Positions 14,690 through 45,944 of a DNA stretch of 64,000 nucleotides are shown here, piece after piece. The translations under genes and the position numbers were made by a program. Under the pieces are notes generated by a model. That model was not told where the DNA came from, searched no databases, and was given only the letters and a program-made list of their open reading frames with translations. Position 1 is the first letter of the stretch; each line of letters starts with the position of its first letter. The stretch covers positions 1,240,001-1,304,000 of the forward strand of contig OX639992.1 of NCBI GenBank assembly GCA_951828515.1, given 5' to 3'. Source of the stretch: an uncultured Poribacteria bacterium. Lineage in GTDB: Bacteria > Poribacteria > WGA-4E > WGA-3G.

Positions 14690-14899
14690 TCACTTTATAT
14701 TCTTGCTCAGCACAATCCTTTGATTTATTCACAAGGCTTTTCCCTACTCGGGACGGTTACAAAACCTACCCTCGATAAGGAGGAGTATGACCTAGACCTT
14801 GTCAGTGAGTTATATATCCTGAAAAGCTCAATCAGTCAAGCAGATCTAAAGAAGATAGTTGGGCACAAAATTAAGTTTTTGGAAAAGGAAAATGAATAA
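14690..14899 (+). pseudogene. fragment of a CD-NTase (CBASS-type cyclic-nucleotide synthase)
   Basis: About 70 codons squeezed between a DUF5916 stop and the ATG of an ABC ATPase, sharing one base with it. The translation resembles the nucleotidyltransferase core of SMODS/CD-NTase proteins. HNPLIYSQG aligns with the HNPDIYPQGS lead, LLGTVTKP with the LGTVIKP strand, EEYDLDLV with the metal-binding D-x-D strand, and SSISQADLKKIVG with the following helix. The catalytic GS is changed to GF, and both ends of the normal protein are missing. A reading frame extends upstream to 14552 but only as an overlap with the DUF5916 gene. It is a relic, not a working enzyme. Family assignment is from remembered pattern. 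Confidence 0.6.
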
Positions 14900-15897
14900 T
14901 GCAAGTTATAAAAATAGATGACTTATACAAAACCTTTAAAACTTATAAACGTAAAAAAGGTTTCATCGGTTCAATTCAGACCCTTTTCACAAAGGAATAT
15001 ATCACCGTAAATGCTGTGGATGGTGTGTCCTTTGGTATCAATCAAGGAGAAATCGTAGGGTACGTTGGACCGAATGGTGCGGGAAAGTCCACGACGATAA
15101 AAATGCTTACAGGCATTCTATACCCAACAAGCGGGGTAATTGAAGTAGGTGGTCTTGTTCCGACAAAGGATAGGAAGCAGAACTTAATGCATATCGGCGT
15201 GGTCTTCGGACAGAGAACACAACTCTGGTGGGATCTTCCACTTATAGAGTCCTTTGAACTTCTAAGGCACATATACAGAGTGCCAGAAAAAATATACAGG
15301 GACAATATTGCACTTTTCGCAGAACTTCTTGATATAGACGAGTTTATTAATACTCCCGTCAGACTGTTATCCTTAGGTCAGCGAATGCGGGGAGATATTG
15401 CAGCGTCACTCCTTCATAACCCCGACATACTCTACTTGGATGAGCCCACAATTGGGCTTGATGTCGTTGTCAAGGAAAGAATTAGGCAATTCATCAAAGA
15501 AATAAACATTGAAAGAAAAACGACAGTCATTCTCACAACTCACGATTTGTTGGACATAGAGGCACTTTGCAACCGGATAATGATAATCGACCATGGCAAA
15601 GTCATCTACGATGGTTCCATAGATGAAATCAGAAGAAGATTTGGTACAGAAAGCACACTCCTAATTGACTTTAAGGAACCACCGGATGGATTGGAAGTCG
15701 ATGGGGCACTGGAAATCCAATTAGAAGGGATCAGGGCATCTATAAAGTTTGATAGAAAAAGATTTGCTGCTAGCGATCTGATATCTGAAATCGCTGGAAA
15801 GTATCCGGTATTGGACCTCACAATAGAGGATATTTCTCTCAATGGGATCATCCGGGATGTATATGAGGAAGGAAAATTATATGAGAGCGTATCTTGA
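14899..15897 (+). CDS. ABC-2 type transporter ATP-binding protein
   Basis: A 332-residue ATPase of the NatA/DrrA-like ABC-2 class. It shows Walker A GPNGAGKSTT (about 56-65), Q-loop VFGQRTQLWWD, signature LSLGQRMRGD (about 155-164), Walker B ILYLDEPTIGLD and switch histidine TTHDLLD. The N-terminal FKTYKRKKGFIGSIQTLFTKEY insertion and C-terminal 90-residue extension are shared with the paralogue at 40895-41896. Two ABC2_membrane_6-like permeases follow directly; the first begins inside this gene (17-base overlap). The trio probably forms one exporter. Confidence 0.92.
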   Translation: MQVIKIDDLYKTFKTYKRKKGFIGSIQTLFTKEYITVNAVDGVSFGINQGEIVGYVGPNGAGKSTTIKMLTGILYPTSGVIEVGGLVPTKDRKQNLMHIGVVFGQRTQLWWDLPLIESFELLRHIYRVPEKIYRDNIALFAELLDIDEFINTPVRLLSLGQRMRGDIAASLLHNPDILYLDEPTIGLDVVVKERIRQFIKEINIERKTTVILTTHDLLDIEALCNRIMIIDHGKVIYDGSIDEIRRRFGTESTLLIDFKEPPDGLEVDGALEIQLEGIRASIKFDRKRFAASDLISEIAGKYPVLDLTIEDISLNGIIRDVYEEGKLYESVS

Positions 15898-16687
15898 AAT
15901 TTGTAAGAAGTCCTTTCAGGAACGGATGGCTTACAGAGGCGAACTCTTGATAAGATTCGTGGGAATATTTATGAGTTTTTATCTCCTTTACATGTTTTGG
16001 AAGGCACTCTATGCCAACTCAACTGATGTACAAGGTATTTCGTTCCACTCAATGATTACATATACCATAATGAGCGCCATCATGGGAGGCATCATAAATA
16101 TCTTCGGCATCCTCAACGTATACTTGGCCTATTGGATGTCAAGTCGGGTGAGAACGGGTGAAATCGTAATGGACATGATGAAACCAACGGATTTCCAACT
16201 TTATCTGTTCTCGCATTCATTCGGACGACTTCTCTTTAACGTGATTGTTTCAGTACCTATTTTCATATTAGCCATTTTCATCTTTAAAATTTATCTCCCC
16301 GATAGTTTAGCGGTGCTCGCGCTTTTTGCAGTTAGCTTAAGTATGAGTTATCTTCTTACTTTTCTCATAGATTTTATGGTATCCTTAGTTTCCTTCTGGA
16401 CGACTCAAAATCAAGGTGTAGGTGGATTCACACGGCTCATTATAGCTCTTCTTTCAGGGGCGTTTATACCACTTTGGTTCTTTCCAGAGTGGGCAAGAAA
16501 TATTCTCTCTTATTTTCCCTTCGCGTCCATATACCATGTCCCCCTTTCTATATATATAGGAAAAATAAAAAGTATTGAGGGTTTTCGCGCAATTTCTCTA
16601 CAGCTCATCTGGATAGGTGCCTTGTATGCGGGGAGCCGCCTTCTATGGTTGAAATCAAGACGCAAGCTTATGACACATGGAGGTTAA
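15881..16687 (+). CDS. ABC-2 type permease (ABC2_membrane_6-like), first of pair
   Basis: A 268-residue membrane protein with about six predicted helices, for example FVGIFMSFYLLYMFW, IPIFILAIFIF and LLTFLIDFMVSLVSFW. It opens with LEICKKSFQERMAYRGELL, a typical amphipathic start of this permease family. The ATG at 15881 has GAGGAAGGA just upstream and overlaps the ATPase by 17 bases; earlier in-frame ATGs lie deeper inside that gene. The second permease starts four bases after this stop. It corresponds in order and look to the protein at 39239-40060. Confidence 0.85.
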   Translation: MRAYLEICKKSFQERMAYRGELLIRFVGIFMSFYLLYMFWKALYANSTDVQGISFHSMITYTIMSAIMGGIINIFGILNVYLAYWMSSRVRTGEIVMDMMKPTDFQLYLFSHSFGRLLFNVIVSVPIFILAIFIFKIYLPDSLAVLALFAVSLSMSYLLTFLIDFMVSLVSFWTTQNQGVGGFTRLIIALLSGAFIPLWFFPEWARNILSYFPFASIYHVPLSIYIGKIKSIEGFRAISLQLIWIGALYAGSRLLWLKSRRKLMTHGG

Positions 16688-16690
16688 AGG

Positions 16691-17497
16691 ATGATATTTT
16701 ATATAAAACTTTTCTTTACTTTCTTTAAACTTAACCTGAAAGCCCAAATGGAATACAGAATCAATTTTATAATGAGTATATTCCACATTTTGATTCTTCA
16801 GCTGGGAAATCTTGGGTTGATATGGGTAGTCTTGGATAGCTTCCAAGCACTCAGAGACTGGACATTTGGAGAGATTGCCTTTCTCGTAGGGTTAAGACTC
16901 CTTTCCCATGGTCTCTTCACCCTATTCCTGCCGGAGATTTATTGGGGACTCAGTAATTACATCGTCCGAGGTGAATTTGATAGATTTCTACTCAAACCTG
17001 TAAACCCGCTGTTTCTCCTCATTACCAACGGCATCATCCTGAGTGGGATCACGGATTTTTCAAGTGGGATTGTAATCTTATGGATCGCTACTAAATCTCT
17101 GGAGTTAAATTGGACTTTCATCAACCTGCTGATACTCCTCGTCGTTGTCTTTAGCGGGCTCCTGATAGAGATTTCCGCCTACTTAGCAACTTCATCCGTT
17201 GCATTCTGGGTGACCAATCTACAGACATTAAATTTCATAACGTTTCAATTCCATGAACAGTATATCCTTTATCCTGTCAGCATATACGGTAAACCTATAC
17301 AGTACTTCCTTACCTTCATAATCCCATTTGCCTTTATCAACTTTTATCCGTCGGCTTATTTTCTTGATAAGCCATCAAGTTTGCTATTCCATTCATACTT
17401 CGTATATCTTACACCGATTGTCGCCCTCATATCCTTTGGCGTGGCTTATTTTATCTGGAAACGGGGAATTTTGGCTTACCAGAGCACAGGATCATAA
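16691..17497 (+). CDS. ABC-2 type permease (ABC2_membrane_6-like), second of pair
   Basis: A 268-residue membrane protein with about six hydrophobic helices. LKAQMEYRINFIMSIFHILILQLGNLGLIWVVL begins the membrane part, and the GEFDRFLLKPVNPLFLLI cytoplasmic loop is a strong signature of the family. The C-terminus ends ..RGILAYQSTGS; the paralogue at 40066-40875 ends ..RRYESSGS, so the last residues are conserved. It would form a heterodimer with the upstream permease, driven by the ATPase at 14899-15897. A DUF5916-type protein begins 75 bases later. Confidence 0.85.
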   Translation: MIFYIKLFFTFFKLNLKAQMEYRINFIMSIFHILILQLGNLGLIWVVLDSFQALRDWTFGEIAFLVGLRLLSHGLFTLFLPEIYWGLSNYIVRGEFDRFLLKPVNPLFLLITNGIILSGITDFSSGIVILWIATKSLELNWTFINLLILLVVVFSGLLIEISAYLATSSVAFWVTNLQTLNFITFQFHEQYILYPVSIYGKPIQYFLTFIIPFAFINFYPSAYFLDKPSSLLFHSYFVYLTPIVALISFGVAYFIWKRGILAYQSTGS

Positions 17498-17571
17498 CGA
17501 CGGCCTCCACCGCTCTACACTTCCCTATGCGAACCAACAAACTTCCACCTCAATCAGTAGAGGAACTCTTT

Positions 17572-19782
17572 ATGACTAATTATTGCAATCTTTGGCGAAG
17601 AATACGGATATACTGTTTTTTTCAGTTTAGCTGCTGGCTATTATTTTCAAATTTTCTCTCGGCGGACACTGAATCGATAGAATATCGGATCAAGGCACAT
17701 CGAACTTTCGCGGACATTAAAATCGACGGTGAACTCACCGAACCAGATTGGCAAGAAGCACAACGCATCGATCACTTTGTTCAATATGAACCGGACGAAG
17801 GGGCACCAATGACGCAACCAACAGAGGTTAAAGTGCTTTATGATGATAAATACCTCTACTTCGGCTTTATCTGTTACGACAACGATTTGTCTAAAATGGC
17901 CGCCGATAAAATGCGCCGTGACGCTTCCCTGTTTGACAATGACAACGTATTTGTCCTCCTTGACACCTACAACGATCAACGAAGTGGATTTTTCTTCCGC
18001 ATCAACCCGTTAGGTACCATGGAAGATATTGCCGTGATGGATAACGGAGACAGCCGAAACGAGAATTGGGATGCTGTCTGGGAATGTCACACTAAAATCA
18101 ATGAAAGCGATTGGAGCGCGGAGATCGCTATTCCTTTCAGCCAACTCCGCTTTAAAAAGAGCAACAATATAGTTTGGGGGGTAAATTTTGGACGGAGCAT
18201 CCAACGTAATTACGAAGAAGGAACTTGGGCACCGGTGCCAAGGGCATACAGATGGCGAGCCATCTATCGCACAGCCAATCTGGGGCGTTTGATCGGCTTA
18301 GAAAATATTGTACCACGAACACATCTGGAACTACTGCCTTATGTCTTACCAGGGGTGAGTGAAAGAAAAGCGGACAATGACACAAATATTTTGCTCGATA
18401 CCGGATTGGATATCAAGTACAGTTTGACCTCAAATCTGACAGCAGATACCACCTTCAACACCGATTTTGTCCAAGTTGAAGCCGATCAGGAACAAGTAAA
18501 CTTAACCCGTTTCAGTCTCTTCTTTCCCGAAAAGCGACCCTTCTTCTTAGAAAGCGCAGCCTTGTTTGATTTCGGTATTCCGCGCACCGGTTTTCGTCAG
18601 CCGCCACCCTTGTTGCTTTTTTACAGTCGTCGCATCGGGATTCAAGATGGGCATGCTATCCCGATTCTTACCGGGGGCAAGATCACAGGAAAAATTGGGT
18701 CTTATGGGGTAGGTCTGCTAAACGTATTTACCGATAAATTTCACGCGGAAGGAACTGACGTACCACGCACAAACTACTCCGTGTTCCGTATGACGCGAGA
18801 TATTTTTAAAGGCTCAACTGTTGGTATGATTGCTATCAACAAACAGGATTCCGATACTTACAACCGGGCAGGCGGATTTGATTTCGTGTATCGCCCCATC
18901 GATAGTCTAAGTCTTCGCGGGCTCTGGGCTCGCACGTTTGAAGAAGATGTGTCGGGAGAACAAGATGCTTTGTACTTCGGAGGCACGTCGGAAACCAATA
19001 ATTTCCGTGTTATCGGATCATATACAGACATAGGTAAGAACTTTAACCCAGAAGCCGGATTCGTCTGGCGAAGAGGGAGTCGTCGTATTCGTAGCGAATT
19101 CCTTTATACACCCCTACTCGGTAAATTCGGGATTCGTCGAATCTGGACAGGACCAGAGTCCAGCTTCATTCTCAATCGAAACAATGAATTAGAAACCAGA
19201 GACTTCAGATTCGTTCTCGGAGGTGAATTTGAAAGCGGAATGGTGTTTCAGCGGTTTAATTGCCAAGTTCAGCGAACCTTTGATCGTCTCTATGAGGACT
19301 TTGAGATCCGAGAGGGGATTATTATTCCGACCGGAGAGTATAATTTCACTTCCTTCAAGGCTCTTATGTCTACTGATGACAGCAAAATGATTTCCGGTTT
19401 GTTTGTTGTGAATTTTGGTAAATTTTTTAGCGGCGAGAGACGCGGTTTTGAGATCGTCGCGGACTTCAGACCGAGTGGGCGTTTCCGTTTTCAACCGCAG
19501 TATGAATTTAACCGCGTCATACTCGAAAATAAAACATTTGATGTCAACGTCTTTGGAGCGCATGTCGCCTATTCCTTCTCCACCGCTTTTTTTGCCAGAC
19601 TTTTCGCCCAATGGAACAGTGATCAAGACCTTATAGCTACGAACTTTTTGTTGAACTATATCTATCGTCCCGGTAGTAACTTCTATCTCGTCTTTAACCA
19701 AATATACGATACCCAAGGAGAAAGGACAGATTTTGTAGATTCTACACTTGTCGCTAAAATGACTTATTGGTGGAATCCATAA
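17572..19782 (+). CDS. DUF5916-type protein with N-terminal CBM9-like domain, predicted outer-membrane barrel
   Basis: A 736-residue secreted protein. The signal segment is CFFQFSCWLLFSNFLSAD (about 14-31). The CBM9-like domain follows: IDGELTEPDWQEAQRID, KVLYDDKYLYFGFICYDND and FVLLDTYNDQRSGFFFRINPLG. The barrel region carries NTDFVQVEADQEQVNLTRF and FFPEKRPFFLESA, hallmark DUF5916 segments, then LLFYSRRIG. It ends VAKMTYWWNP, like the 36983-39214 copy (VAKVSYLWNL). ATG 17572 has AGAGGAACT upstream; an earlier ATG at 17527 lacks a signal-like N-terminus. It follows an ABC-2 trio and precedes a transmembrane sigma factor. Carbohydrate or surface-polymer binding is an inference. Confidence 0.82.
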   Translation: MTNYCNLWRRIRIYCFFQFSCWLLFSNFLSADTESIEYRIKAHRTFADIKIDGELTEPDWQEAQRIDHFVQYEPDEGAPMTQPTEVKVLYDDKYLYFGFICYDNDLSKMAADKMRRDASLFDNDNVFVLLDTYNDQRSGFFFRINPLGTMEDIAVMDNGDSRNENWDAVWECHTKINESDWSAEIAIPFSQLRFKKSNNIVWGVNFGRSIQRNYEEGTWAPVPRAYRWRAIYRTANLGRLIGLENIVPRTHLELLPYVLPGVSERKADNDTNILLDTGLDIKYSLTSNLTADTTFNTDFVQVEADQEQVNLTRFSLFFPEKRPFFLESAALFDFGIPRTGFRQPPPLLLFYSRRIGIQDGHAIPILTGGKITGKIGSYGVGLLNVFTDKFHAEGTDVPRTNYSVFRMTRDIFKGSTVGMIAINKQDSDTYNRAGGFDFVYRPIDSLSLRGLWARTFEEDVSGEQDALYFGGTSETNNFRVIGSYTDIGKNFNPEAGFVWRRGSRRIRSEFLYTPLLGKFGIRRIWTGPESSFILNRNNELETRDFRFVLGGEFESGMVFQRFNCQVQRTFDRLYEDFEIREGIIIPTGEYNFTSFKALMSTDDSKMISGLFVVNFGKFFSGERRGFEIVADFRPSGRFRFQPQYEFNRVILENKTFDVNVFGAHVAYSFSTAFFARLFAQWNSDQDLIATNFLLNYIYRPGSNFYLVFNQIYDTQGERTDFVDSTLVAKMTYWWNP

Positions 19783-19831
19783 ATTGGTCTGAATAAAATG
19801 ATGTTCGCATAATCTGTGAGAAATGGATATA

Positions 19832-19872
19832 TCCGCTGCTACAGAACATTTGATATTTCCAAGCGGAGTTTT
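19832..19872 (+). terminator. weak terminator-like hairpin
   Basis: TCCGCT (19832-19837) pairs with AGCGGA (19862-19867), followed by GTTTTT, after the DUF5916 gene. The loop is long (24 bases) and the stem short, so termination is uncertain. Confidence 0.3.
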
Positions 19873-19999
19873 TGAGTAGGATCTGTTTTTTTATATAAAT
19901 AGGTTGGTAGTTCACTATATAATGAGATTATATAAACCGTTCTGATTAAACCTATTGCCGAGTGCGGACATTCAAATCTACAGTTTAGGAGGGTTTCCG

Positions 20000-22984
20000 G
20001 TGGAAAAAGGAAATGATGCGCAGCTCATTCAGGATACGTTGGCAGGCGATGATGAAGCCTTTAATGCTTTGGTGCGAAAGTACCAAAAGAGCGTTCACGC
20101 CCTTGCGTGGCGAAAAATAGGTGATTTTCAGGACGCTGAGGAGGTAACCCAAGACACTTTCCTGCAAGCATACAAAAAACTTTCGACGCTCAGGAACCCT
20201 CATCAATTCGCTGGATGGCTGTATGTTATCGCAAACCGGCTTTGTCTCAATTGGATTCAAAAACAGAAATCTGCCATACAATCCTTAGAGGACACGCCTA
20301 TGAAAGAAATCGAGAATGCGTCGTATACACATTATGAATCCGCGCGACGTGAGACGGCAGCCGGCGAGTATCGCCTTGAACGCGCCAAAAAACTGCTCGC
20401 AAAACTGCCGGAAAGTGAGCGCACTGTCGTCACCCTCTACTATCTCGGTGAGATGAGCACCAAGGAGATTAGCAGATTCTTGGGAGTGTCCGTAAACACC
20501 ATTACCAGTCGGCTCCAGCGCGGACGAAAGCGTTTACAAGACGACCAAGAACATCTCATCAAAGAAGTCCTCGGCGGCACGCAGATACCGGCGCGTTTGA
20601 GCGAGAGCATCAAGCGGCAAATCGCCGATATGAAACCTACACCGTCGTCACCTGGAAAACCGTTGCTACCGTGGAGTGCCTTCGGCGCAGCTGTGGTCAT
20701 GATTATATTGACGCTCGGGGTCAGCAACCGATATCTTGCCCGTTTTCAGAGACCTTACAACTTTGAGGCACAATCTGAACCTACCATTGAAATCATTGAG
20801 GCACCTGTCGTTTTTGATGTTGAATCGAAACCTGATGTGCGAAATCAAATTGGACGAGTTACGTCCTCAGACAATAACATAGGGAGGAGTTCGCAGACTT
20901 TTGAGCACGTTTCAACATCTAATGCACAAGAAAATTCCGCTAAGTTTTCCAGAGCACAGTGGATACAAGGGAATGCACCACCGGGCGGGCATGTCCTTAA
21001 TATCTTTGCTGAACCTGAAGGTACCCTGTATGCTGCTTCACCAACAGGGATGTACAGACTTGCAGCAGGCGCGACTACATGGACACACATCAACGCAAAT
21101 ATCCCGATTGATAAATCTTTCAGGTTTCCGATGGCAGCGCATAAAGGAACCCTTTATATCGTCTCTGCTGATGAGATATTTACTTCAGAAGATACGGGTG
21201 AGACGTGGAATTCGATGGGTTCTCGACCGAAGGGATACCCTATTGGACTCATCATCACGAATGCGCCACAGGCACCTATTACGATGTATCTTGCGCTTCA
21301 ACATAAACAGATTTTTCGTTCTACGGATGGTGGCATAACATGGAACCTCTTCAATGACGGACTAAAAAACGAAAGGATTTCTGCTATAGCGACCGTTGGA
21401 AAAATAGTGTTCGTTGGCACGAATCGTGGACTCTATCGTCTCGATTCAGATATTTGGAAAAAGGTGCCGGTAGGCACATCACAAACCGTCTATTCCTTGG
21501 CAGTATTTAATAATAATGTTTATGTTGCAATGGGGCCTGATCTGCCGCATCACGATTCAGATATTTGGAAAAAGGTGCCGGTAGGTGCATCACAAACTGT
21601 CTATTCCTTGGCAGTGTTTAATAACAATCTGCATGCTGAAACAGGTCCCTACCGACTCGGATTCACGCCAATAGAGGTAGGGAAACCAGCGGTGCCGAAA
21701 AGCGAGTCACATCCAGTTAGGATCTTCCACTCGGCTGACTTGGGAGCGTCATGGACCGAAATAATGCATATAGATAAACCTGACTCGAAGGCGGGTGCAT
21801 CGGGTATAACGGTTTTAGCTGCCGGTGAAACGATCTTAGCCTTGGGAGCGACACAATCTCGTTCAACAGATGGTGGGCATACGTGGACAGAGTTCGGAGT
21901 TGACACGGATATGCCCATGATCAGCAACCTTCCAGCCGTAGCGATGAACAAGACAACATTCTACAAAGCCGGTGCATCTGGTATTCATCGCACAACCGAT
22001 AGCGGTAAATCGTGGCATCTATTTATGGATGGAATCGTAGGAACAAGGACAAACAACCTGGTTGTCTTCAACAACAGATTATACGCGCATACCGGCTATG
22101 AAGTTTATCAATCAACAGATGAAGGTCGGACTTGGAAAAAACTTTCGATTGCCGGGGAGTTTGCTACGGCGGCGACTCCGTCTGACCCCTTAAAACAGGA
22201 CAAGTTAGGTGTTTATACCTCTTTCGATTCAAAGTTGATGCTTGACGGTAACATACTTTATTTCGTTTCGCCTGAAAAGCAGGTTTTGCGAATTTACCGT
22301 TTATCTGCAGACGGCAATACGCTAATTCCTGTTCAAGACTTTTCCACTCACGACCCAGATTCACTATCTCCTCTGCCTGAAAAAGAGGCGAAAATCAAAG
22401 CGATTGTTGTCAGTAATAATGTGTTCTACGCAGAACACAGACAAAGACTTTTCAAGTGGAAACTCGGGGATCCCAAATGGATAGATACCGGATTGATAAA
22501 CACTGATAAACAACCTAATGCGGATATGAAAAATGGTTTCACGGTAGCAGTTTTAGAAGAAACCGTCTACGTCGGTAAGCGAGATGGTCAACTATTTCAA
22601 TCGCTGGATAGTGGAAAAAACTGGAAAGATATTACGCTAAGCCTGCCCCTTCGCTTTACGCATTTCAACGAGATCCTCTTTGTAGGCTCAACGGTTTATG
22701 TCGCAACAGACGCAGGTGTCTTGGCTTCACAAACCGGCGAACACTGGCACGTGATAACTGATAACCTTGGAGAGCGTCCCAGCATAAACAGATTTGCTAT
22801 AGATGGTACAACAGTTTATGGCACTGACGATGCGGGTGTCTACCGTTTGGACACCCTTGGCAAGTGGAAGCAGATTGCTTCAGAAGTTTTAGGGGACGTT
22901 AATTCTCTCGCCGTCCTTAACAATCAACTCTATACTGCTATTAATGAGCGAGGGATTTTTCATATCTCACTTGGCGAAGAATAG
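20000..22984 (+). CDS. transmembrane ECF-type sigma factor with Asp-box (BNR/sialidase-like) propeller ectodomain
   Basis: A 994-residue fusion. Residues 1 to about 185 are a sigma70 region 2 and 4 protein: DEAFNALVRKYQKSVHALAW, AEEVTQDTFLQAYKKL, GWLYVIANRLCLNWI, then SERTVVTLYYLGEMSTKEIS and SRLQRGRKRL. A single hydrophobic helix follows (about 223-245, WSAFGAAVVMIILTLGVSN), then a conserved PYNFEAQSEPTIEI juxtamembrane segment. The remaining 700 residues are beta-rich, with seven Asp-boxes such as STDGGITW, SADLGASW, TTDSGKSW and SLDSGKNW. GTG 20000 follows TTAGGAGG. No anti-sigma gene is adjacent. I infer an outside sensor directly tethering a sigma factor, with release likely by proteolysis. 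Paralogue on the minus strand at 55174-58047. Confidence 0.85.
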   Translation: MEKGNDAQLIQDTLAGDDEAFNALVRKYQKSVHALAWRKIGDFQDAEEVTQDTFLQAYKKLSTLRNPHQFAGWLYVIANRLCLNWIQKQKSAIQSLEDTPMKEIENASYTHYESARRETAAGEYRLERAKKLLAKLPESERTVVTLYYLGEMSTKEISRFLGVSVNTITSRLQRGRKRLQDDQEHLIKEVLGGTQIPARLSESIKRQIADMKPTPSSPGKPLLPWSAFGAAVVMIILTLGVSNRYLARFQRPYNFEAQSEPTIEIIEAPVVFDVESKPDVRNQIGRVTSSDNNIGRSSQTFEHVSTSNAQENSAKFSRAQWIQGNAPPGGHVLNIFAEPEGTLYAASPTGMYRLAAGATTWTHINANIPIDKSFRFPMAAHKGTLYIVSADEIFTSEDTGETWNSMGSRPKGYPIGLIITNAPQAPITMYLALQHKQIFRSTDGGITWNLFNDGLKNERISAIATVGKIVFVGTNRGLYRLDSDIWKKVPVGTSQTVYSLAVFNNNVYVAMGPDLPHHDSDIWKKVPVGASQTVYSLAVFNNNLHAETGPYRLGFTPIEVGKPAVPKSESHPVRIFHSADLGASWTEIMHIDKPDSKAGASGITVLAAGETILALGATQSRSTDGGHTWTEFGVDTDMPMISNLPAVAMNKTTFYKAGASGIHRTTDSGKSWHLFMDGIVGTRTNNLVVFNNRLYAHTGYEVYQSTDEGRTWKKLSIAGEFATAATPSDPLKQDKLGVYTSFDSKLMLDGNILYFVSPEKQVLRIYRLSADGNTLIPVQDFSTHDPDSLSPLPEKEAKIKAIVVSNNVFYAEHRQRLFKWKLGDPKWIDTGLINTDKQPNADMKNGFTVAVLEETVYVGKRDGQLFQSLDSGKNWKDITLSLPLRFTHFNEILFVGSTVYVATDAGVLASQTGEHWHVITDNLGERPSINRFAIDGTTVYGTDDAGVYRLDTLGKWKQIASEVLGDVNSLAVLNNQLYTAINERGIFHISLGEE
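21443..21664 (+). repeat. in-frame tandem duplication (111 bases) inside the propeller
   Basis: Two adjacent 111-base units, 21443-21553 and 21554-21664, both begin with GATTCAGATATTTGGAAAAA and encode DSDIWKKVPVG-T/A-SQTVYSLAVFNNN. The 37-residue duplication keeps frame and differs by a modest number of bases, mostly toward the end, so it is fairly recent. The paralogue at 55174-58047 has a single copy here. Confidence 0.85.
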
Positions 22985-23015
22985 ATGAAACAAACACCCG
23001 CACTTAATTTGTATT

Positions 23016-23963: not shown

Positions 23964-23980
23964 CACCCAGCTTGCTATGG

Positions 23981-26534: not shown

Positions 26535-26652
26535 AGCAATTAATTAACTAAAATCGCGATGCTATTGGCGAACTCTGGAATCAAGGTCCCCTCTAATGTC
26601 CTAACGCAGTTTCAATTACAAGCATCCATCATTTAATTATGGAGTGAAATTT

Positions 26653-27360: not shown

Positions 27361-27402
27361 TAGGCATAGGAAAACAGTTTAAGGGAAGCCTTATACTGGA
27401 GA

Positions 27403-34491: not shown

Positions 34492-34781
34492 TTCAGTCCT
34501 CAAGCCTAAAAGTCACTAAACAGTAAAAGTATTGACGATTTTTTTCTATCTTCCCACAATCCTCTCTTTTTTTGCAGAATTATGCAACCATTTTCCCTTA
34601 ACGCGCGCCACTATATATTAACTTGAAGAATTTTATGCCGACTTCTTGAATCCCACTGGAGAAAAAACGCTGGGGTCGTGGGAGAGATTGACGGAATCCC
34701 CTCTCGATGTCTTCAACAAGACGATACTCGTGTATAAAACGGTCCTGCTGTGCCAATTTGAAAGCCTGCTCTTGGAGGTGC
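34492..34781. other. intergenic region before the sigma factor gene
   Basis: About 290 bases. It is AT-rich with long T-runs near 34539-34546 and 34568-34575. TTGACG at about 34533 followed 17 bases later by CACAAT could be a weak sigma70 promoter. TTGGAGG just before 34782 is the ribosome-binding site of the next gene. No other structure recognised. Confidence 0.4.
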
Positions 34782-36935: not shown

Positions 36936-36982
36936 CCCAGAGTTGCTTCGCGTGATTTTTGGGTACTTTGGAAAATTGGAAA

Positions 36983-39214: not shown

Positions 39215-39238
39215 CATTTTATATTGGAACAGATCGCA

Positions 39239-40060
39239 ATGGCACACTTCAGAAAATTTTGGATACGCTTCAGAATTTACACGCGGTTTAGCAAAATCCG
39301 TTTTATTGATCGATTAAGCTACCGTGCCCATTTTTTCTTAGTCTTAACGGAATATCTTCTGATAATAATTGTCAATTATTTTCTCTGGAAGGCAATCTTG
39401 GCGGATGGTAGAACAATTCGTGGGTATACCTTAGAGGACATGGTCACATACGTAGCGATTGCCGGTGTATTTCGGTTTATTATCAATGAACTTTCCGGGG
39501 GGATTTCTCGTGAGATGAGCGGTCAGTATCATAGTGGAGAACTCATTATGAATCTCTTAAAGCCTGTGAGTTATCAGCTATACATATATTTTCGGGCTTT
39601 TGGAGGTATTCTCTTTCAACTTCTTTTTAGAGGTGCTACCGTCTTAACGATCTGGGCGTTATGGGTTGGATTGACACCCCCCGATAGCCCAGTGCCATTC
39701 ATTATGAGTCTGATATTCGGAGTTTTGATTTACGCTGGAATTGCTTTTTTGGTCGGTCTCACGACTTTCCATATAGAAAATAATGCGGGCGTTCTCTTTG
39801 CTACAACCGCGAGCATTGAACTGCTATCAGGGACCTTGATACCGTTGGTAATGTTTCCGAGCTGGATGGTTTCAATATTAGATTACCTGCCATTCAAAAT
39901 GATTTTCTATATACCGATGCAGATCTATTTGGGTCGATTAGGTGTCGAAGAAACAGTTAGTGCGTTGACTGTCCAAGTCATTTGGGCATCTACCTTATCC
40001 ATAGCCGGATTCTTTTTGTTCAAGACCTCGGTGCGAAAACTGACCATACAAGGGGGTTAA
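39239..40060 (+). CDS. ABC-2 type permease (ABC2_membrane_6-like), first of pair
   Basis: A 273-residue membrane protein with about six helices, for example FFLVLTEYLLIIIVNYFLW, FIMSLIFGVLIYAGIAFLVG and FATTASIELLSGTLIPLVMF. The HSGELIMNLLKPVSYQLYIYF loop is a family signature, matching RTGEIVMDMMKPTDFQLYLF in the protein at 15881-16687. The ATG at 39239 is used; a TTG at 39224 is possible. It lies 24 bases downstream of a DUF5916 gene. The second permease follows after five bases. Confidence 0.85.
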   Translation: MAHFRKFWIRFRIYTRFSKIRFIDRLSYRAHFFLVLTEYLLIIIVNYFLWKAILADGRTIRGYTLEDMVTYVAIAGVFRFIINELSGGISREMSGQYHSGELIMNLLKPVSYQLYIYFRAFGGILFQLLFRGATVLTIWALWVGLTPPDSPVPFIMSLIFGVLIYAGIAFLVGLTTFHIENNAGVLFATTASIELLSGTLIPLVMFPSWMVSILDYLPFKMIFYIPMQIYLGRLGVEETVSALTVQVIWASTLSIAGFFLFKTSVRKLTIQGG

Positions 40061-40065
40061 ATTTT

Positions 40066-40875
40066 ATGTCGATGCCTCGATTCTTCTTTTATGGGAAAAT
40101 TTATCTTCGTTACTTTGGACAGTATTTCAAAGGTAGACTCGCCTATCGAGCAGATATTCTGATTCAGATGGTGTTTGCCCTCTCGACTCAGATCACTTCT
40201 CTGATTTTTATTTTAATAATCTTCAACCATATTCCGGATATCAATGGCTGGCGTTATGGGGAGATTCTTTTTATTTATGGGTTTGCCCAAACCTCAATTG
40301 CGTTGTTTTCGATGTTCTTTTCAAATCTAATCCAGTTGGGACGCTTTTACATTCTTGATGGAAATTTTGATCGCGTGTTGCTTCGCCCATTGCCGCCTCT
40401 GTTCCAGATTATCATTGAGCGATTGGACATCGGCTCGTTTTCTACCTTGGCGATGGGAGTCGGTGCTCTATTGTACGCTGCTGCGAAGTTAAATATGTCA
40501 TTATCTGTCTTTGAGTGCCTCATCTTTTTCGGGCTGGTACTCTCAGCGACCCTCATTTTTACAGGGTTGGTGCTTATTTTGGTGAGTTTAACTTTCTGGA
40601 TAAAGGACCCAACAGGGGCACTCGCCTGGCCCTTAATGACTGTCCGTGAATTCGCGAAATATCCGATTACCATTTACAGCCCGGCGTTACAAGTGTTCCT
40701 GAGTTGGATATTGCCTTTGGCATTTACTTCCTTTTATCCCGCAACGCTCTTTTTAGACAGACAGGATTACGTCCTTTACGCCTACCTAACCCCTGTCATC
40801 GCTCTGCTGGTCTCGGGAATAGGGACTCTGATATGGAATCTGGGATTGCGAAGGTACGAAAGTTCGGGTTCTTAA
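40066..40875 (+). CDS. ABC-2 type permease (ABC2_membrane_6-like), second of pair
   Basis: A 269-residue membrane protein with about six hydrophobic helices. It contains GNFDRVLLRPLPPLFQIII (family loop; compare GEFDRFLLKPVNPLFLLI at 16691-17497) and ends RRYESSGS. ATG 40066 follows AAGGGGG by nine bases. It pairs with the permease just upstream and the ATPase 19 bases downstream. In this trio the ATPase comes last, whereas in the 14.9-17.5 kb trio it comes first. Confidence 0.85.
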   Translation: MSMPRFFFYGKIYLRYFGQYFKGRLAYRADILIQMVFALSTQITSLIFILIIFNHIPDINGWRYGEILFIYGFAQTSIALFSMFFSNLIQLGRFYILDGNFDRVLLRPLPPLFQIIIERLDIGSFSTLAMGVGALLYAAAKLNMSLSVFECLIFFGLVLSATLIFTGLVLILVSLTFWIKDPTGALAWPLMTVREFAKYPITIYSPALQVFLSWILPLAFTSFYPATLFLDRQDYVLYAYLTPVIALLVSGIGTLIWNLGLRRYESSGS

Positions 40876-40894
40876 TGATTGGGAGGAGTTTCTG

Positions 40895-41896
40895 ATGGCT
40901 TTAATAGAGGTCCAAAACCTAACCAAAAGTTATAAAACATTCAAGCGAAAGGAAGGATTAAAAGGGGCTTTCATCAACCTTTTTAGAAGGGAATACGAAT
41001 TCGTTCAGGCGGTAGATAACATTAACTTCCATGTTGAGCAGGGAGAAATCCTCGGTTACATCGGACCCAACGGTGCTGGCAAATCAACGACGATTAAAAT
41101 CCTAACAGGAATCCTCACCCCAACGGACGGAAAAGTGACGGTGAATGGGCTTGTGCCTTATAAACAGAGACAACAACATGTGAAAAATATTGGTGTTGTT
41201 TTTGGACAACGCACCCAACTATGGTGGGATATAGCTGTTATTGAAGCGTTTACTCTGCTCAGAGACATCTATGAAGTCAGCAAAACGGATTTCCAAGAGC
41301 AGCTAAAAAAGTTTGACGAGGTATTAGGTATCGGTCCCTTACTTCACATCCCTGTCCGAAAATTAAGCCTGGGACAGAGAGTTCGGTGTGACATCGCTGC
41401 TTCTTTATTACATAATCCACCCGTTGTTTTTTTGGATGAACCCACGATTGGACTCGATGTTGCAGTGAAATCGAATATTCGGGAATTCATTAAAGAGATG
41501 AATGCGAGTCTCGGAACAACTATGATCTTAACGACACACGACCTCAGTGACATCGAGTACCTCTGCCAAAGAAGTCTCATCATTGATCAAGGGAAGATTA
41601 TCTTTGATGGAGACCTACAAAAGGCAAAAGATGAATTAGCCAGAGAACGAAAAATTCAGGTCGATCTTTATGAGCGCGTTGATATAGACGGCATTCGTGA
41701 GCAACTCAAGATTGCTAAGCTTGAATTCACAAGGCGAAACGATTACTCTTTAACCATTTCTTTTGATAAAGATGAGATCTCAGCAATCGATATCATTCAA
41801 AAAATCTTGGATCATCTCCATCCGCGTGACATAAAGATTGAAGAACCAACGATCGAAACTGTTGTAAAAGAAATATACCAAAAGAAATCCTTCTGA
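40895..41896 (+). CDS. ABC-2 type transporter ATP-binding protein
   Basis: A 333-residue ATPase. Walker A is GPNGAGKSTT (about 56-65), followed by VFGQRTQLWWD, signature LSLGQRVRCD (about 155-164), Walker B VVFLDEPTIGLD and switch TTHDLSD. It shares the FKRKEGLKGAFINLFRREYE insertion and the long C-terminal extension with the ATPase at 14899-15897, so the two trios are true paralogues. ATG 40895 follows GGGAGGAG. A 266-base gap with an IS insertion follows. Confidence 0.92.
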   Translation: MALIEVQNLTKSYKTFKRKEGLKGAFINLFRREYEFVQAVDNINFHVEQGEILGYIGPNGAGKSTTIKILTGILTPTDGKVTVNGLVPYKQRQQHVKNIGVVFGQRTQLWWDIAVIEAFTLLRDIYEVSKTDFQEQLKKFDEVLGIGPLLHIPVRKLSLGQRVRCDIAASLLHNPPVVFLDEPTIGLDVAVKSNIREFIKEMNASLGTTMILTTHDLSDIEYLCQRSLIIDQGKIIFDGDLQKAKDELARERKIQVDLYERVDIDGIREQLKIAKLEFTRRNDYSLTISFDKDEISAIDIIQKILDHLHPRDIKIEEPTIETVVKEIYQKKSF

Positions 41897-42162: not shown

Positions 42163-43630
42163 CATAGGTGTCAATTTAGGGATTTTCCGTAGCCTCTTGG
42201 AGTTTCCGCCATGTTGTATTTTTTCCAGTGCTTCTCTGGAAAGTGCCTCCATTTTCAAAGGCACGCTTTATGTCTTTCAAGGTTTCAAGGAGTGCTGTTT
42301 TTGCGTGATGAAAACTCAAAGCGATCAGCCTCGCATAGCCTGCGATATACGTTGCGGTTTTGATGAAACTGTGTTGTATGTGTCGGTATCCTGTGCCTAA
42401 CATGACGGCATTTTGGATGAGTATGGCAATGAGTTTGGCATAGATTTCAGAGAGGATGCGATAGGGTTTCTGACTCCGGGAGACCTGAAGTTTTGAGATG
42501 CTTTTGAAACCCTTAAACATGAGTTCAATCTGCCATCGGATCCCGACTATGATGCCTATCTGTTTGGGTGTGAGTTGATCCGCCTCGATATTGGTAATAT
42601 AGAGGTTGTATCCAGCGAGGCGTAAGAGTGTTTTTGAGGGGGTTTGTGCCTTGCGTTTGGCACGGTATCGGATGGAGCGTCGGCGTTTATCGGTTTCTGC
42701 TTCGGAGAGGCGTTCAGCGATGAGAGATGCCGGAAGTCGCTTTGTTTTCCCGATACGGATGGACTTGCGGATGTGGGTGTTTTCTTCGCCTCTGAGCATG
42801 TTTTGTAAATCGAGGGGTTCCCCGGTGTCATCAGACAGATACGAGTTGGCTTTCAACCGAGAGATCCAATAGATGCCGTTTTGCGTGAGTTTCTCAAGTT
42901 CATCAAGCGAAAAGTAAGCGAGGTCTGCGAGGCGTAAACTTCCCTGGGGCAGGGGCGGTGCTGCTTTTGCGGCGGTACTATCAGCCGTCATACCGTCGGT
43001 AAGGTGAAACTGCTGAAAGCCCCCGGTAAGCACATCAAAGCAGAGATGCAGTTTCAAAGCGGCTTTATGCGGATGATTCTTCTTCGGGGGTCCTTTCCAC
43101 GTCTCATGGAGTTCATCGGGCAGGGAGATCCACGTCGAATCTTGAACGTAAACACCCGTAAACGCCTCAAGTAAAGGCAGGGCCTCGGGGGGACTCGCAA
43201 CTTCAAGCATCTGTGGAATGGCTGCCTCAAGGGTGCGTTTGAACATTTCAGCCGTTTCGGGGGTCAGCCGTTGCGCAAGGGAAACCTGCCGGCTGACCTG
43301 TATACCGAGCGTCGCAGCCGTTTCGGTAAGGTGCTGATAACTCGCTTCAGGGTGTTCCAACCACCCGAAGACCAGCGTTTGGGCTAACGCACTGCCTGTG
43401 AGTTTGCGTTTTCTTTTCACGCACCCGGTCTGCGGTGCGACTTCAGCGGGAACGGTTTGAAGAATCATTTGCATTTTTTCGGGAACCTGTTGTAAAATGG
43501 ACATTGGAAATACCTCTTTTTTTGTAGAATAAACACCTAAAATCTTTTCTACATTATACAAGAGGTATTTCTGTTTTACAGCATTTTTTCACATCAAAAG
43601 CATACTTATTTCTACTAAATTGACACCTAT
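42163..43630 (-). mobile_element. IS4-type insertion sequence with 16-base terminal inverted repeats
   Basis: The element has perfect terminal inverted repeats: ATAGGTGTCAATTTAG at 42164-42179 and its complement CTAAATTGACACCTAT at 43615-43630. Between them lies one DDE transposase on the minus strand. Both sides are flanked by the same 20 bases (42143-42162 and 43631-43650), an unusually long direct repeat for a target duplication. A single extra C at 42163 makes the left boundary uncertain by one base. Length is about 1.47 kb. Confidence 0.85.
42176..43504 (-). CDS. IS4-family DDE transposase
   Basis: A 442-residue transposase that cuts and joins the element's ends. The DDE residues are visible: VYVQDSTWISLP (first Asp), LRLADLAYFS (second Asp) and IRWQIELMFKGFKS, the Y-(2)-R-(3)-E-(6)-K-like end with the Glu. 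The start ATG at 43504 has AAGAGG upstream on the minus strand; an ORF extension to 43561 lies outside the expected protein. The frame is intact, so the element may still be active. It lies inside its inverted repeats, about 200 bases upstream of a shortened sigma factor gene. Confidence 0.88.
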   Translation of the reverse strand: MSILQQVPEKMQMILQTVPAEVAPQTGCVKRKRKLTGSALAQTLVFGWLEHPEASYQHLTETAATLGIQVSRQVSLAQRLTPETAEMFKRTLEAAIPQMLEVASPPEALPLLEAFTGVYVQDSTWISLPDELHETWKGPPKKNHPHKAALKLHLCFDVLTGGFQQFHLTDGMTADSTAAKAAPPLPQGSLRLADLAYFSLDELEKLTQNGIYWISRLKANSYLSDDTGEPLDLQNMLRGEENTHIRKSIRIGKTKRLPASLIAERLSEAETDKRRRSIRYRAKRKAQTPSKTLLRLAGYNLYITNIEADQLTPKQIGIIVGIRWQIELMFKGFKSISKLQVSRSQKPYRILSEIYAKLIAILIQNAVMLGTGYRHIQHSFIKTATYIAGYARLIALSFHHAKTALLETLKDIKRAFENGGTFQRSTGKNTTWRKLQEATENP

Positions 43631-43698
43631 GGTGCAACTTTTCGACCCCCAATTTTCGTCTTTAATCACGAAAGAAAGTTTTTTTATGGAGGTACGGC

Positions 43699-44397
43699 AT
43701 GCAACATAACGATGATAAGTTAGTTCAACTCACTTTGGAAGGCGATCATCATGCTTTTGCCGCTTTGGTAGAGAAATATCAATCGCAGATTCACGCGCTT
43801 GTCTGGAGAAGAATCGGCGATTTTCACATCGCAGAAGACATTACGCAGGAGGTTTTTCTCACGGCGTATCAAAAACTCGCTACGCTGACACACCCAGACC
43901 GATTTGCAAAATGGCTCTATGTTATCGCCAACAACCTCTGCGTCACGTGGCTCCGAAAACAAGCCACTCAACCGCAACTGCAGTCACTAACATCAACCGA
44001 TCCGGAAGAACTCGCAGAATTGTGTTATGCCGAGTATACAGGACAACAGCAGAAGGAAAGGGGAAGGGAATCGGATCGCGCCTTGATTCAAAAACTCCTT
44101 GATAAACTCCGAGAGGCTGACCGGACAGTGATCCGTCTTTACTATCTCGCTGAAATGACCTGCGAGGAGATTAGCAAGTTTTTGGGCGTATCTCAGAACA
44201 CAATTAAGAGCCGCCTGAGCCGTGCGCGGAAGCGATTAAAAAAGCAGGCTGAATCGATTGAACAAACGCTCTGTAGTTTCCGATTGTCTTTTAATTTCAT
44301 GGAAACATTCTTCGTGAATTTGGTATTCCCAAGTTTCGGAATGCAGCTAAATCCAGTCAAATCTTGCAGTTTCTATTCATCCGAATACTACCTATAA
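43699..44397 (+). CDS. ECF-type sigma factor, shortened (no membrane helix)
   Basis: A 232-residue protein whose first 185 residues match the sigma parts of the three transmembrane sigma factors here: HAFAALVEKYQSQIHALVW, AEDITQEVFLTAYQKL, KWLYVIANNLCVTWL, DRTVIRLYYLAEMTCEEIS and SRLSRARKRL. After SFRLSFN it no longer follows them. Where the others have ...PLIPWAI.. and a helix, it ends within 40 unrelated residues (SSEYYL). I infer an old truncation of a transmembrane sigma factor; it may act as a free cytoplasmic sigma or be decaying. An IS4-type element lies 68 bases upstream, and a broken DUF5916 gene lies downstream. Confidence 0.78.
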   Translation: MQHNDDKLVQLTLEGDHHAFAALVEKYQSQIHALVWRRIGDFHIAEDITQEVFLTAYQKLATLTHPDRFAKWLYVIANNLCVTWLRKQATQPQLQSLTSTDPEELAELCYAEYTGQQQKERGRESDRALIQKLLDKLREADRTVIRLYYLAEMTCEEISKFLGVSQNTIKSRLSRARKRLKKQAESIEQTLCSFRLSFNFMETFFVNLVFPSFGMQLNPVKSCSFYSSEYYL

Positions 44398-44425
44398 CAG
44401 ATTTTAGTACTTAGAGAGGAGAAAG

Positions 44426-44899
44426 ATGGTTCAAAAGATCGAGGAACAAGATGGCTACATGTTACTCTATTTCGGAGAACCGCCGGCAGATGTAGGAGAG
44501 ATTGAGTTTGTCAATTGTCTCGCACATCAACAGAACCAGATACTGTTCTGCAAATGGCGTGATAACAATATTTGGACGCTACCGGGTGGGCGCGCCGAAC
44601 CGGGGGAAACGGCTGAGGAAACGGCACACCGAGAACTTCTGGAAGAGACGGGTGCAACGCTGAAAAATCTTGAAGTGCTGTGTTACATCCACTGTTTTAT
44701 GTTCAATCTCGAATACTGGGGAATCGCTTATTTGGGAGAAATAGAGGGGTTAGGTAGCCCACTCGACCTTGAGGAAGTCAGTGAAGCGAGTCTGTTCTCA
44801 CATTTTCCAGAAAACCCGAACAATCCGGGCCCGTTCGGGAATCAAAGCAAAGCATTATATCTCGCCGCACTGCGTAAACTCTCAGACACAAAAGATTAG
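44426..44899 (+). CDS. NUDIX hydrolase
   Basis: A 157-residue NUDIX protein. The Nudix box is GGRAEPGETAEETAHRELLE followed by ETG (about 53-75), with all expected positions kept. It precedes ...LEVLCYIHCFMFN. The start ATG has AGAGGAG upstream. It differs from the NUDIX gene at 1598-2005 and sits between the shortened sigma factor and a broken DUF5916 gene. Substrate unknown. Confidence 0.87.
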   Translation: MVQKIEEQDGYMLLYFGEPPADVGEIEFVNCLAHQQNQILFCKWRDNNIWTLPGGRAEPGETAEETAHRELLEETGATLKNLEVLCYIHCFMFNLEYWGIAYLGEIEGLGSPLDLEEVSEASLFSHFPENPNNPGPFGNQSKALYLAALRKLSDTKD

Positions 44900-45055
44900 G
44901 TCGCAGGACGCACCGAAGGTGCCAGGGGATAGGGACTTACAAATTTCTGATGAATTTTCGTCAGTGTGGGTTAAACTTTTACGAAGGAGATTTGATGTAA
45001 CTCGCAAAATTGCTAAACACATTATAGACACACACCGAAAAAGAAAGAAACAATA

Positions 45056-45944
45056 ATGGAAAAAGTCGGACGAGGGCACTGGGCACGCGCACTCATTTGG
45101 ATGCCGATGCTCCTCTTGGTGCCTATATCACTTTTCGCAAATACACAAAATACAAGACGCACGCTTCGTGCGGTATGGACGGAGACCCCACCCGTTATTG
45201 ACGGAAATTTAACAGAATCCGTATGGCAACACGCCGATATTGCAACCAATTTCTTCCGAGCAAAGGAGGGAGAGACACATCCTGCCGAATTAGACACCGA
45301 AGTTCGAGTGCTGTTATGAGTTTCCAGAAGCGCATTTCGTGGAGTCTTTTTGGGTGGATACACGCCATTTCTATCAAACCAATGCACAAAGGTTGCTACG
45401 GGAACGACTGAGCGAGTCCCGTTTCTACATTGACGTTGGGCGGTTTAACTTTTTCACTTCCGGTGGATTCGGTCAACTTCGCGAGGTCGGTCAGCTTTTT
45501 GATACCAAGTTCATCCGATCAAAGATTGATTATCAGGCACCGTGGGGGCAATTGGGGGTTATCAATCGTTTCGGCACCCGTCGAGATGAATTCAATCGAT
45601 TCACCAGTTTCTCCGGGGGCGTCAACCTTTTCGGCAAGTTCACGATCGATCTGGATCTCGATAATTTCTTTTGGCGCGCACACCGAAATACCCTTATTTT
45701 GCGGCTTCGCAGCAATTACCAATTTACCCAAAAAATCGGTTGGCGAATTTTCGTGGAACGTGTAGATGAACGGCTGCGAGATGAGATCACCTACAACTTC
45801 AATTCGATCTTCGACTACGAATTTACGCCAGAAAGCCATTTCTTCTTTGTGGTTGTCGATAGCCTGCCGGGGGATCGGGCTGTGTTTGCAAAGTTGGCTT
45901 ACCTTTTTGAACCCAATCTTCCAGAGTTCGCCCAGTTTAATTGA
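45056..45944 (+). pseudogene. DUF5916-type gene with a large internal deletion
   Basis: The start (45056-45319) encodes a signal peptide (ALIWMPMLLLVPISLFAN) and the beginning of a CBM9-like domain: VIDGNLTESVWQHADI and DTEVRVLL. It stops at TGA where intact copies read VLYDDKYLYFGF. A second frame (from 45318 to 45944) resumes with the C-terminal barrel: FWVDTRHF, LDLDNFFWRAH, FDYEFTPESHFFFVV and VFAKLAYLFEP. About 450 residues are missing, and the frame is shifted at the junction (near 45315). Compared with the intact paralogues it is a fossil. Confidence 0.75.

What the first reader, a model, noticed from the sequence alone, without database searches (positions are those of the whole stretch)
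14899..45944. Recurrent neighbourhood: DUF5916 barrel protein, ABC-2 trio and membrane-anchored sigma factor
Seen: DUF5916-ABC trio-DUF5916-sigma (12.7-23 kb), sigma-DUF5916-ABC trio (34.8-41.9 kb) and shortened sigma plus broken DUF5916 (43.7-45.9 kb). Gene order differs, so the sets were not simply copied as one block. I infer a surface system: the barrel protein with a CBM9-like domain binds a glycan or polymer, the trio moves a compound, and the sigma factor controls expression. This may be the undescribed system of the window.
Basis: inference. Interest (0 to 1): 0.8.

Follow-up and report, generated by a model that had tools for sequence, protein, structure and literature searches.

The report
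Autoregulated sigma–barrel–transporter cassettes in Poribacteria
In Poribacteria, uncultured bacteria many of which live in sponges, two gene cassettes each join a surface-barrel protein and a membrane pump to a membrane-spanning sigma factor that probably senses the outside and switches on its own cassette.

Summary
Two five-gene cassettes exist: A (ATPase–permease–permease–DUF5916–sigma, 14899–22984) and B (sigma–DUF5916–permease–permease–ATPase, 34707–41896). Sigma factors and barrels of A and B come from different paralogue clades, so the set was assembled twice. The A trio was found in 5 and the B trio in 7 of 84 Poribacteria genomes; all five genes in 4 and 5. The general claim fails: in six other genomes 0 of 48 DUF5916 genes lie within 20 kb of any of 140 anchored sigmas (expected about 6). 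These sigmas form a family, 30 here, with one membrane helix and exchangeable outer domains. I found their promoter, TTATGCA-N18-21-GTCWYTA: 39 sites against 1 control here, tracking sigma number over 84 genomes (rho 0.85). Its -10 variant splits by sigma clade (12/12 against 8/8); each cassette's promoter has its own sigma's variant, though the A site is weak. Best reading: self-activating envelope-sensing operons. Cargo and proteolytic release are inferred. The 'shortened' sigma is a conserved short form.

The parts
10701..10736 (+). Probable promoter of cassette A, AAGATGCA-N18-TTTGTCTTTA (clade I type, TT after GTC); weak site
   Evidence: PWM 10.3, below the cut-offs used elsewhere; 3 of 3383 shuffled 200-nt windows reach 10.2; about 100-300 nt upstream of the ATPase in G007, G048 and G083
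10818..12587 (+). ABC exporter (ABC_membrane + ABC_tran, MsbA-like), part of an insert in cassette A, not a core part
12691..14688 (+). DUF5916 'a' (665 aa), part of the same insert
14899..15897 (+). Cassette A: ABC ATPase (DrrA/GldA-like)
15842..16687 (+). Cassette A: ABC-2 permease 1 (PF06182)
16691..17497 (+). Cassette A: ABC-2 permease 2 (PF06182)
17527..19782 (+). Cassette A: DUF5916 'b', CBM9-like domain plus supposed outer-membrane barrel
19955..22984 (+). Cassette A: membrane-anchored ECF sigma, helix 238-256, VPS10/BNR propeller (probable true start GTG at 20000)
34579..34613 (+). Promoter of cassette B, ATTATGCA-N17-CGCGCCACTA (clade II type, AC)
   Evidence: PWM 15.8; 15.3 in G021, G018, G081; 13.0 in G007 and G039, there about 800 nt upstream of sigma with a 123-aa ORF between
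34707..36935 (+). Cassette B: membrane-anchored ECF sigma, helix 247-265, thioredoxin-like C-terminal domain without CxxC (WDPPC)
36959..39214 (+). Cassette B: DUF5916 'c', CBM9 fold plus supposed barrel
39224..40060 (+). Cassette B: ABC-2 permease 1 (PF06182)
39982..40875 (+). Cassette B: ABC-2 permease 2 (PF06182)
40895..41896 (+). Cassette B: ABC ATPase; homology to G018 and G072 ends at about its stop codon
42176..43561 (-). Transposase (DDE_Tnp_1); the insertion is absent in G039 and G082
43629..43664 (+). Family-type promoter upstream of the short sigma
   Evidence: PWM 11.9; 10.1-10.8 at the same place in L118, L119, L138
43699..44397 (+). Short ECF sigma without a membrane helix, kept as such in 3 other genomes
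45339..45944 (+). Decayed DUF5916 remnant (no Pfam hit itself; 94-96% identical to parts of larger DUF5916 ORFs in G082 and G039)
55174..58047 (-). Third anchored sigma of the window (propeller), no DUF5916 or trio beside it

Best explanation
Cassettes A and B are accessory operons of Poribacteria that have moved as units at least in part. Each encodes (i) a transmembrane ECF sigma factor whose outer domain (propeller in A, thioredoxin-like in B) is the probable sensor, (ii) a probable outer-membrane barrel with a CBM9-like domain, and (iii) an ABC-2 transporter of two unlike permeases and one ATPase. When the outer domain is triggered, the sigma domain is set free from the membrane, most likely by proteolysis near the conserved juxtamembrane stretch, and starts transcription at its cognate TTATGCA...GTC promoter in front of its own operon. 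That gives positive feedback and more barrel and transporter. Barrel and transporter then handle one envelope compound, most likely a surface glycan or glycolipid that is exported or remodelled. Shown by computation: gene set, order, relocation, selection, fold classes, promoter and its match to sigma clade. Inferred: topology, proteolytic release, direction and cargo of transport, contact between barrel and transporter.
For: Same five genes in the same order in 4 genomes for A and 5 for B, this one included. B has other surroundings on both sides in G018 and on the right in G072. In G081 trio A plus barrel b sits at the locus of B behind a B-type promoter and a B-type sigma N-terminus. Separate assembly: sigma A in a 19-row clade (98/98), sigma B in an 8-row clade (94/92); barrel A sister to d401448 (100/98), barrel B to d3819586 (100/99). 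A third trio, in G030, has an anchored sigma directly behind it. dN/dS is 0.05-0.24 for all ten cassette genes. Promoter: EM score 309.5 against 233-243.5 in 6 shuffles; 43 PWM sites in 684 kb against 2-5 shuffled, 41 outside my ORF calls; 39 genome-wide against 1 control; counts track sigma counts over 84 genomes, rho 0.85; -10 variant by clade 12/12 against 8/8, Fisher 8e-6; the sites of A and B carry the variant of their own sigma's clade.
Against: 0 of 48 DUF5916 genes in six other genomes lie near any anchored sigma, so the partnership is rare. G007 lacks the barrel in cassette B. G073 keeps a trio-B relative without DUF5916, and G059 a barrel with B-type permeases in a genome without any match to the anchored-sigma profile. 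The A site scores only 10.3; the window has 10 sites at 9.5 or more, some surely chance; no site scores directly before sigma A. Promoters may be inherited with duplicated genes; away from sigma genes the clade match is 9/12 and 6/7 (p 0.02, clustered sites). The sigma B thioredoxin domain lacks CxxC, so a redox sensor is unlikely. The DUF5916 barrel part was modelled with low confidence (mean pLDDT 50.8). I did not search for the release protease.
Confidence: 0.6

Rival explanations
1. The sigma factors are an abundant family that lands beside many genes; in A and B they are only passengers of accessory islands and regulate something else.
For: 30 full-length anchored sigmas in this genome, up to 58 (a scoring cap) elsewhere; no general DUF5916-sigma link in six other genomes.
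Against: Two separate assemblies plus a third trio-sigma pair in G030, relocation together, and sites of the right clade variant in front of each unit.
Confidence: 0.2
2. The cassettes are chance neighbours in a gene-dense variable region, conserved only because the genomes are close relatives.
For: Cassette orthologs are about 87-98% identical; A lies at the same place in this genome, G007 and G048; counted by DUF5916 cluster the own-genome enrichment is only 4 of 10 against 1.7 expected (p 0.07).
Against: B lies in other surroundings in G018 and G072, A's trio and barrel at the B locus in G081; A occurs in another genus (G048); DUF5916 stands beside the two B-type permeases at 51-62% identity in another family (G059).
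Confidence: 0.1
3. The unit is an uptake or resistance module: the barrel takes up a glycan or lipid, or the trio expels a toxic compound (DrrAB-like), induced by envelope damage.
For: ATPase closest to DrrA and GldA models, below their curated cut-offs, and to ABCA-type chains; CBM9 fold.
Against: No catabolic gene or binding protein within the two cassettes of this genome; direction cannot be read from sequence.
Confidence: 0.3

Closest known systems
ECF52 sigma factors such as SCO4117 of Streptomyces (passages of PMC5826349 and PMC8999054)
   Same: ECF sigma domain, then a membrane helix, then a large outer domain; proteolytic release proposed there
   Different: No zinc finger found in the 11 anchored sigmas scanned; Poribacteria, not Actinobacteria; outer domains are propellers, thioredoxin-like, kelch, lectin and others; a traceable promoter; tens of copies per genome
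IutY sigma/anti-sigma fusion of Pseudomonas putida (ECF243, passages of PMC8999054)
   Same: Sigma factor and membrane-spanning regulator in one protein, linked to a surface transport system, activated by intramembrane proteolysis
   Different: No anti-sigma domain found in the proteins scanned; the partner barrel is DUF5916, not a TonB-dependent receptor
DUF5916 (PF19313) with CBM9_1 (PF06452)
   Same: DUF5916 over cut-off; CBM9 fold by Foldseek (7nwn, TMt 0.70)
   Different: No paper found under this name in the held library
ABC2_membrane_6 (PF06182) transporters
   Same: Two PF06182 permeases plus one ATPase, with relatives in Clostridium and Geobacillus among others
   Different: No DUF5916 in the flanks of 74 loci outside Poribacteria; 4 of these have an ordinary short sigma gene somewhere in the flank

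Membership tests
ECF sigma factors | Sigma70 regions 2 and 4 (no region 3 hit) | tested here: met
   Sigma70_r2 and r4_2 over cut-off; TIGR02937 over cut-off for 34707
ECF52/ECF48/ECF53 membrane-bound sigma factors | Zinc-finger (anti-sigma-like) domain between sigma and helix | tested here: not met
   No zinc-finger or anti-sigma family among Pfam hits of 11 anchored sigmas scanned of 30 (E cut-offs 0.01 or 0.001)
ECF52/ECF48/ECF53 membrane-bound sigma factors | Membrane helix followed by an outer domain | tested here: met
   Hydrophobic helix starting at 220-261 in 29 proteins; 4 of them have a weak second peak further on; sidedness inferred
ECF52/ECF48/ECF53 membrane-bound sigma factors | Membership by ECF phylogenetic group | not tested
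   No ECF group models at hand
IutY-type cell-surface signalling | TonB-dependent receptor as partner | tested here: not met
   Partner barrels hit DUF5916 and CBM9_1 only
DUF5916 (PF19313) | Profile over cut-off | tested here: met
   71.2 and 67.5 bits against 22.6 for b and c
CBM9 | CBM9 fold | tested here: met
   36959 protein: 7nwn TMt 0.70; profile of A3 against 1i82 E 1.3e-4
CBM9 | Sugar binding | not testable with these tools
   Needs a binding assay; ligand residues not compared
Anti-phage defence | Match to a known defence system | tested here: not met
   9 proteins scanned; only ATPase-level matches of 14899-15897 in PADLOC-DB

The most novel reading that the evidence does not exclude
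Poribacteria carry a large repertoire of one-protein envelope sensors that I found described nowhere in the held library: transmembrane ECF sigma factors with a constant sigma-helix-juxtamembrane unit, interchangeable outer domains, and their own promoter class whose -10 element diverged with the sigma clade. Each sensor feeds back on itself and on nearby genes. Cassettes A and B are cases in which such a sensor was twice joined to a DUF5916 barrel and an ABC-2 transporter to make a movable sense-and-secrete operon.
Probability: 0.55. Interest if true: 0.78.

Novelty: new variant of a known kind. Interest (0 to 1): 0.62.

Why it matters
If true, these uncultured bacteria use tens of membrane-spanning sigma factors per genome to sense their surroundings. 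The promoter found here makes that a regulon that can be predicted and tested from sequence in the 55 of 84 genomes with 8 or more copies. It also gives DUF5916, for which I found no paper by name, a specific regulatory and transport setting.

Tried and rejected
General DUF5916-sigma association: tested and rejected (some contig lengths in that shuffle were approximate). Association outside the phylum: none in 74 loci, but most are Gram-positives without an outer membrane, the list was the best 80 of 130, and some flanks are short, so a weak control. DUF5916 'a' and the exporter at 10818 as core parts: rejected. The short sigma as a broken copy: rejected. A redox sensor in sigma B: unlikely, no CxxC behind the helix region in 7 proteins examined (2 of this genome, 5 orthologs). 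Defence system: no support. First motif searches (dyads; narrow two-block EM) failed; I saw the pattern by eye in the listing and the wider EM then recovered it. In one search the real set had 400 restarts and each shuffle 150, so the genome-wide control is the stronger test. In one search, 10 of 30 sigma rows in the three clades had no site reaching 10.5 and were not counted; 2 further rows outside the clades were split one to one. In one search, 5 of 24 sites were not counted. The DUF5916 model was poor outside the CBM9 part. A sequence search of permease 2 found no solved relative. The second structure job was not used.
Full report
WHERE. The window is bases 1240001-1304000 of a 5.85-Mb single-contig genome. 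The closest relatives of a cassette B permease lie on contigs titled Candidatus Poribacteria. The genome has 14 DUF5916 places (a later search listed 13), three pairs of PF06182 permeases and 63 Sigma70_r2 rows, 62 distinct.

OBSERVATION. Pfam confirms the families. Cassette A is ATPase-permease-permease-DUF5916-sigma (14899-22984). Cassette B is sigma-DUF5916-permease-permease-ATPase (34707-41896). Gaps within the trios and to DUF5916 are short or negative. In this genome 7 of 14 DUF5916 genes lie within 8 kb of a sigma gene of any kind against 2.0 expected (p 0.005); counting DUF5916 clusters once gives 4 of 10 against 1.7 (p 0.07).

CONSERVATION. A search of 84 phylum genomes with permease 2 of B found B-type copies at 91-100% identity in 7 genomes, this one included, and divergent ones in G073 (65%) and G059 (62%). 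A-type copies showed up in 5, a lower bound because the query was B. I read the loci of all of these. Cassette B has all five genes in this genome, G039, G021, G018 and G072 (sigma cut by the contig start in G072); G082 ends inside DUF5916; G007 lacks DUF5916. Cassette A has all five in this genome, G007, G048 (another genus) and G083. In G081 the A trio and barrel sit at the B locus behind a sigma that is B-like at its N-terminus and carries a Bmp/PnrA domain. G059, of another family, has a DUF5916 ORF (in frame with a glycosyltransferase part, possibly a chimera) beside B-type permeases. The right flank of B stops matching at about the ATPase stop codon in G018 and G072. On the left, G018 keeps the promoter region and one further piece of about 130 bases, while the genes beyond differ. 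Cassette A lies at the same place in this genome, G007 and G048, and on one side also in G083. dN/dS is 0.05-0.24 for the ten cassette genes and 0.16-0.26 for the short sigma.

SEPARATE ASSEMBLY. A tree of 32 sigma rows puts sigma A in a 19-row clade (98/98) and sigma B in an 8-row clade (94/92, just under the star limit). In the 14-row DUF5916 tree barrel b is sister to the gene at 401448 (100/98) and barrel c to that at 3819586 (100/99); joins of long branches elsewhere in that tree are unsure. Trio A is about as close to the genus-wide trio C (ATPase 53.6%) as to trio B (51.1%). So the three-part set was put together at least twice.

OTHER TRIOS IN THE PHYLUM. I read 13 further trio or permease loci (L058, L122, L125-L135). 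One has DUF5916, about 9 kb from a lone PF06182 permease (G014, L125). One, in G030 (another family of the order), has an anchored sigma of 930 aa directly behind the trio and a second sigma protein after it, without DUF5916. The trio-sigma link thus has a third case; the DUF5916 link rests on A, B and G059.

LIMIT OF THE CLAIM. In six other genomes of 1 to 4 contigs, with 140 anchored-sigma matches and 48 DUF5916 places, none of the 48 lies within 20 kb of such a sigma; about 6 were expected. Among 74 trio loci outside Poribacteria none has DUF5916 in the flank held, up to about 10 kb. One further case in this genome is a sigma (1471789-1474749) one gene away from DUF5916 (1467793-1470513) without a trio.

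THE SIGMA FAMILY. Twenty-nine sigma proteins of the fetched loci have a hydrophobic helix starting at residue 220-261, followed by a conserved stretch (consensus RFQKPYSFEAxSEPTIEIIDAPIVL). A search with this segment found 30 full places and 2 fragments in this genome and matches in 67 of 84 phylum genomes, up to 58 per genome, where 58 was also the cap of scored candidates. Other phyla were not searched with it. In the 11 anchored sigmas scanned with Pfam the outer part is a VPS10/BNR propeller (2), thioredoxin-like (1), kelch, PD40, C-type lectin or M16-like (1 each), or without a family (4). No zinc-finger or anti-sigma domain was reported. The thioredoxin-like domain has W[DS]PPC in 4 and no such motif in 3 of 7 proteins.

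THE PROMOTER. Upstream regions of 28 anchored sigmas share ATTATGCA-N17/18-nnCGTCwyTA. A weight-matrix scan of 684 kb (with overlaps) gave 43 sites at 11 or more, 41 of them outside my ORF calls, against 2-5 in shuffled sequence. The pattern TTATGCAN{18,21}GTCWYTA has 39 matches in the genome and 1 in the reversed control. Over 84 genomes the number of matches follows the number of anchored sigmas (Spearman 0.85); the 55 genomes with 8 or more sigmas average 16.6 matches, the other 29 average 0.41. The two bases after GTC are TT in 12 of 12 clade I promoters and AC/AT in 8 of 8 promoters of clades II and III (Fisher 8e-6); ten further sigma rows of these clades had no site at 10.5 or more. One clade I row counted (1520494) shows no helix by my measure. 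Inheritance with the duplicated gene can produce part of this pattern; sites not in front of sigma genes agree in 9 of 12 and 6 of 7 cases (p 0.02, several sites clustered, one inside an ORF).

THE CASSETTE PROMOTERS. B has a site at 34579 of the AC type, and its sigma is in clade II. A has a weak site (10.3) at 10701 of the TT type, and its sigma is in clade I. In G007 and G048 that site lies just upstream of the A ATPase; in the window a 4.1-kb insert with an ABC exporter and DUF5916 'a' lies between. Hence both cassettes look self-activating whatever the gene order, B on firmer ground than A.

PARTS OF THE OUTPUT. The N-terminal part of DUF5916 c has the CBM9 fold (7nwn, TMt 0.70; 1i82, E 1.3e-4). 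The rest was modelled with low confidence, with many strands and only weak hits, many of them outer-membrane barrels. The ATPases are nearest to the DrrA and GldA models, below their cut-offs, and the B ATPase to ABCA-type chains. Cargo and direction are unknown; export or remodelling of an envelope glycan or glycolipid is my guess.

COMPARISON. Membrane-bound ECF sigmas with outer domains are known: ECF48, ECF52, ECF53 and the IutY fusion (passages of PMC8999054; passages of PMC5826349). The present family lacks the zinc finger in the proteins scanned, is poribacterial, swaps its outer domains, and has a traceable promoter. Searches of the held library for DUF5916 (0 papers), Poribacteria with sigma factor (8 papers, 7 listed), ECF sigma with C-terminal extension and Planctomycetes terms (0 and 1 paper), propeller or sensor fusions (29 papers, 12 listed), ECF classification terms (26 papers, 12 listed) and membrane-anchored sigma terms (1 paper) did not show it described; I saw listings only, apart from passages of five papers. 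In the two Poribacteria papers among these the word 'sigma' was absent. The library misses most subscription journals.

Noticed in passing
L086:7966-12066 (genome 2919966-2924066): A 1366-aa open frame joins an ECF sigma factor, an FtsZ (tubulin and FtsZ_C) domain and a DNA polymerase III alpha subunit (PHP, NTPase, finger). A second protein, L053:14464-15684 (406 aa), joins sigma and an FtsZ GTPase domain and lies beside a DUF5916 gene. Not checked in other genomes.
   Followed up: partly
L131:9225-17997 (G030): A trio followed on the same strand by a 930-aa anchored sigma (helix 216-234, other juxtamembrane sequence) and a 569-aa sigma protein: a third trio-sigma neighbourhood, without DUF5916.
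   Followed up: partly
L076:7790-9838 and L076:2281-3531: A sigma factor whose outer domain holds a C-type lectin lies near a stand-alone C-type lectin gene; both have a family promoter upstream.
   Followed up: partly
L140:5879-7441 (G081): An ECF sigma N-terminus fused to a Bmp/PnrA nucleoside-binding domain, without the membrane helix, in front of the cassette A trio at the cassette B locus.
   Followed up: partly
[quoted passage not shown]
   Followed up: partly
window 60841-60875 (-): A strong family promoter (15.3) about 490 bases upstream of the ABC ATPase gene 58533-60383, near the anchored sigma at 55174-58047.
   Followed up: no
window 28871-31207: A 778-aa protein with no Pfam family (E up to 0.001), with orthologs at 88% identity or more in other genomes.
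   Followed up: no
L069 (genome 3615863-3621729): Three genes of 272-293 aa, each with a family promoter of the AT type upstream; the one scanned (279 aa) has no Pfam family.
   Followed up: no
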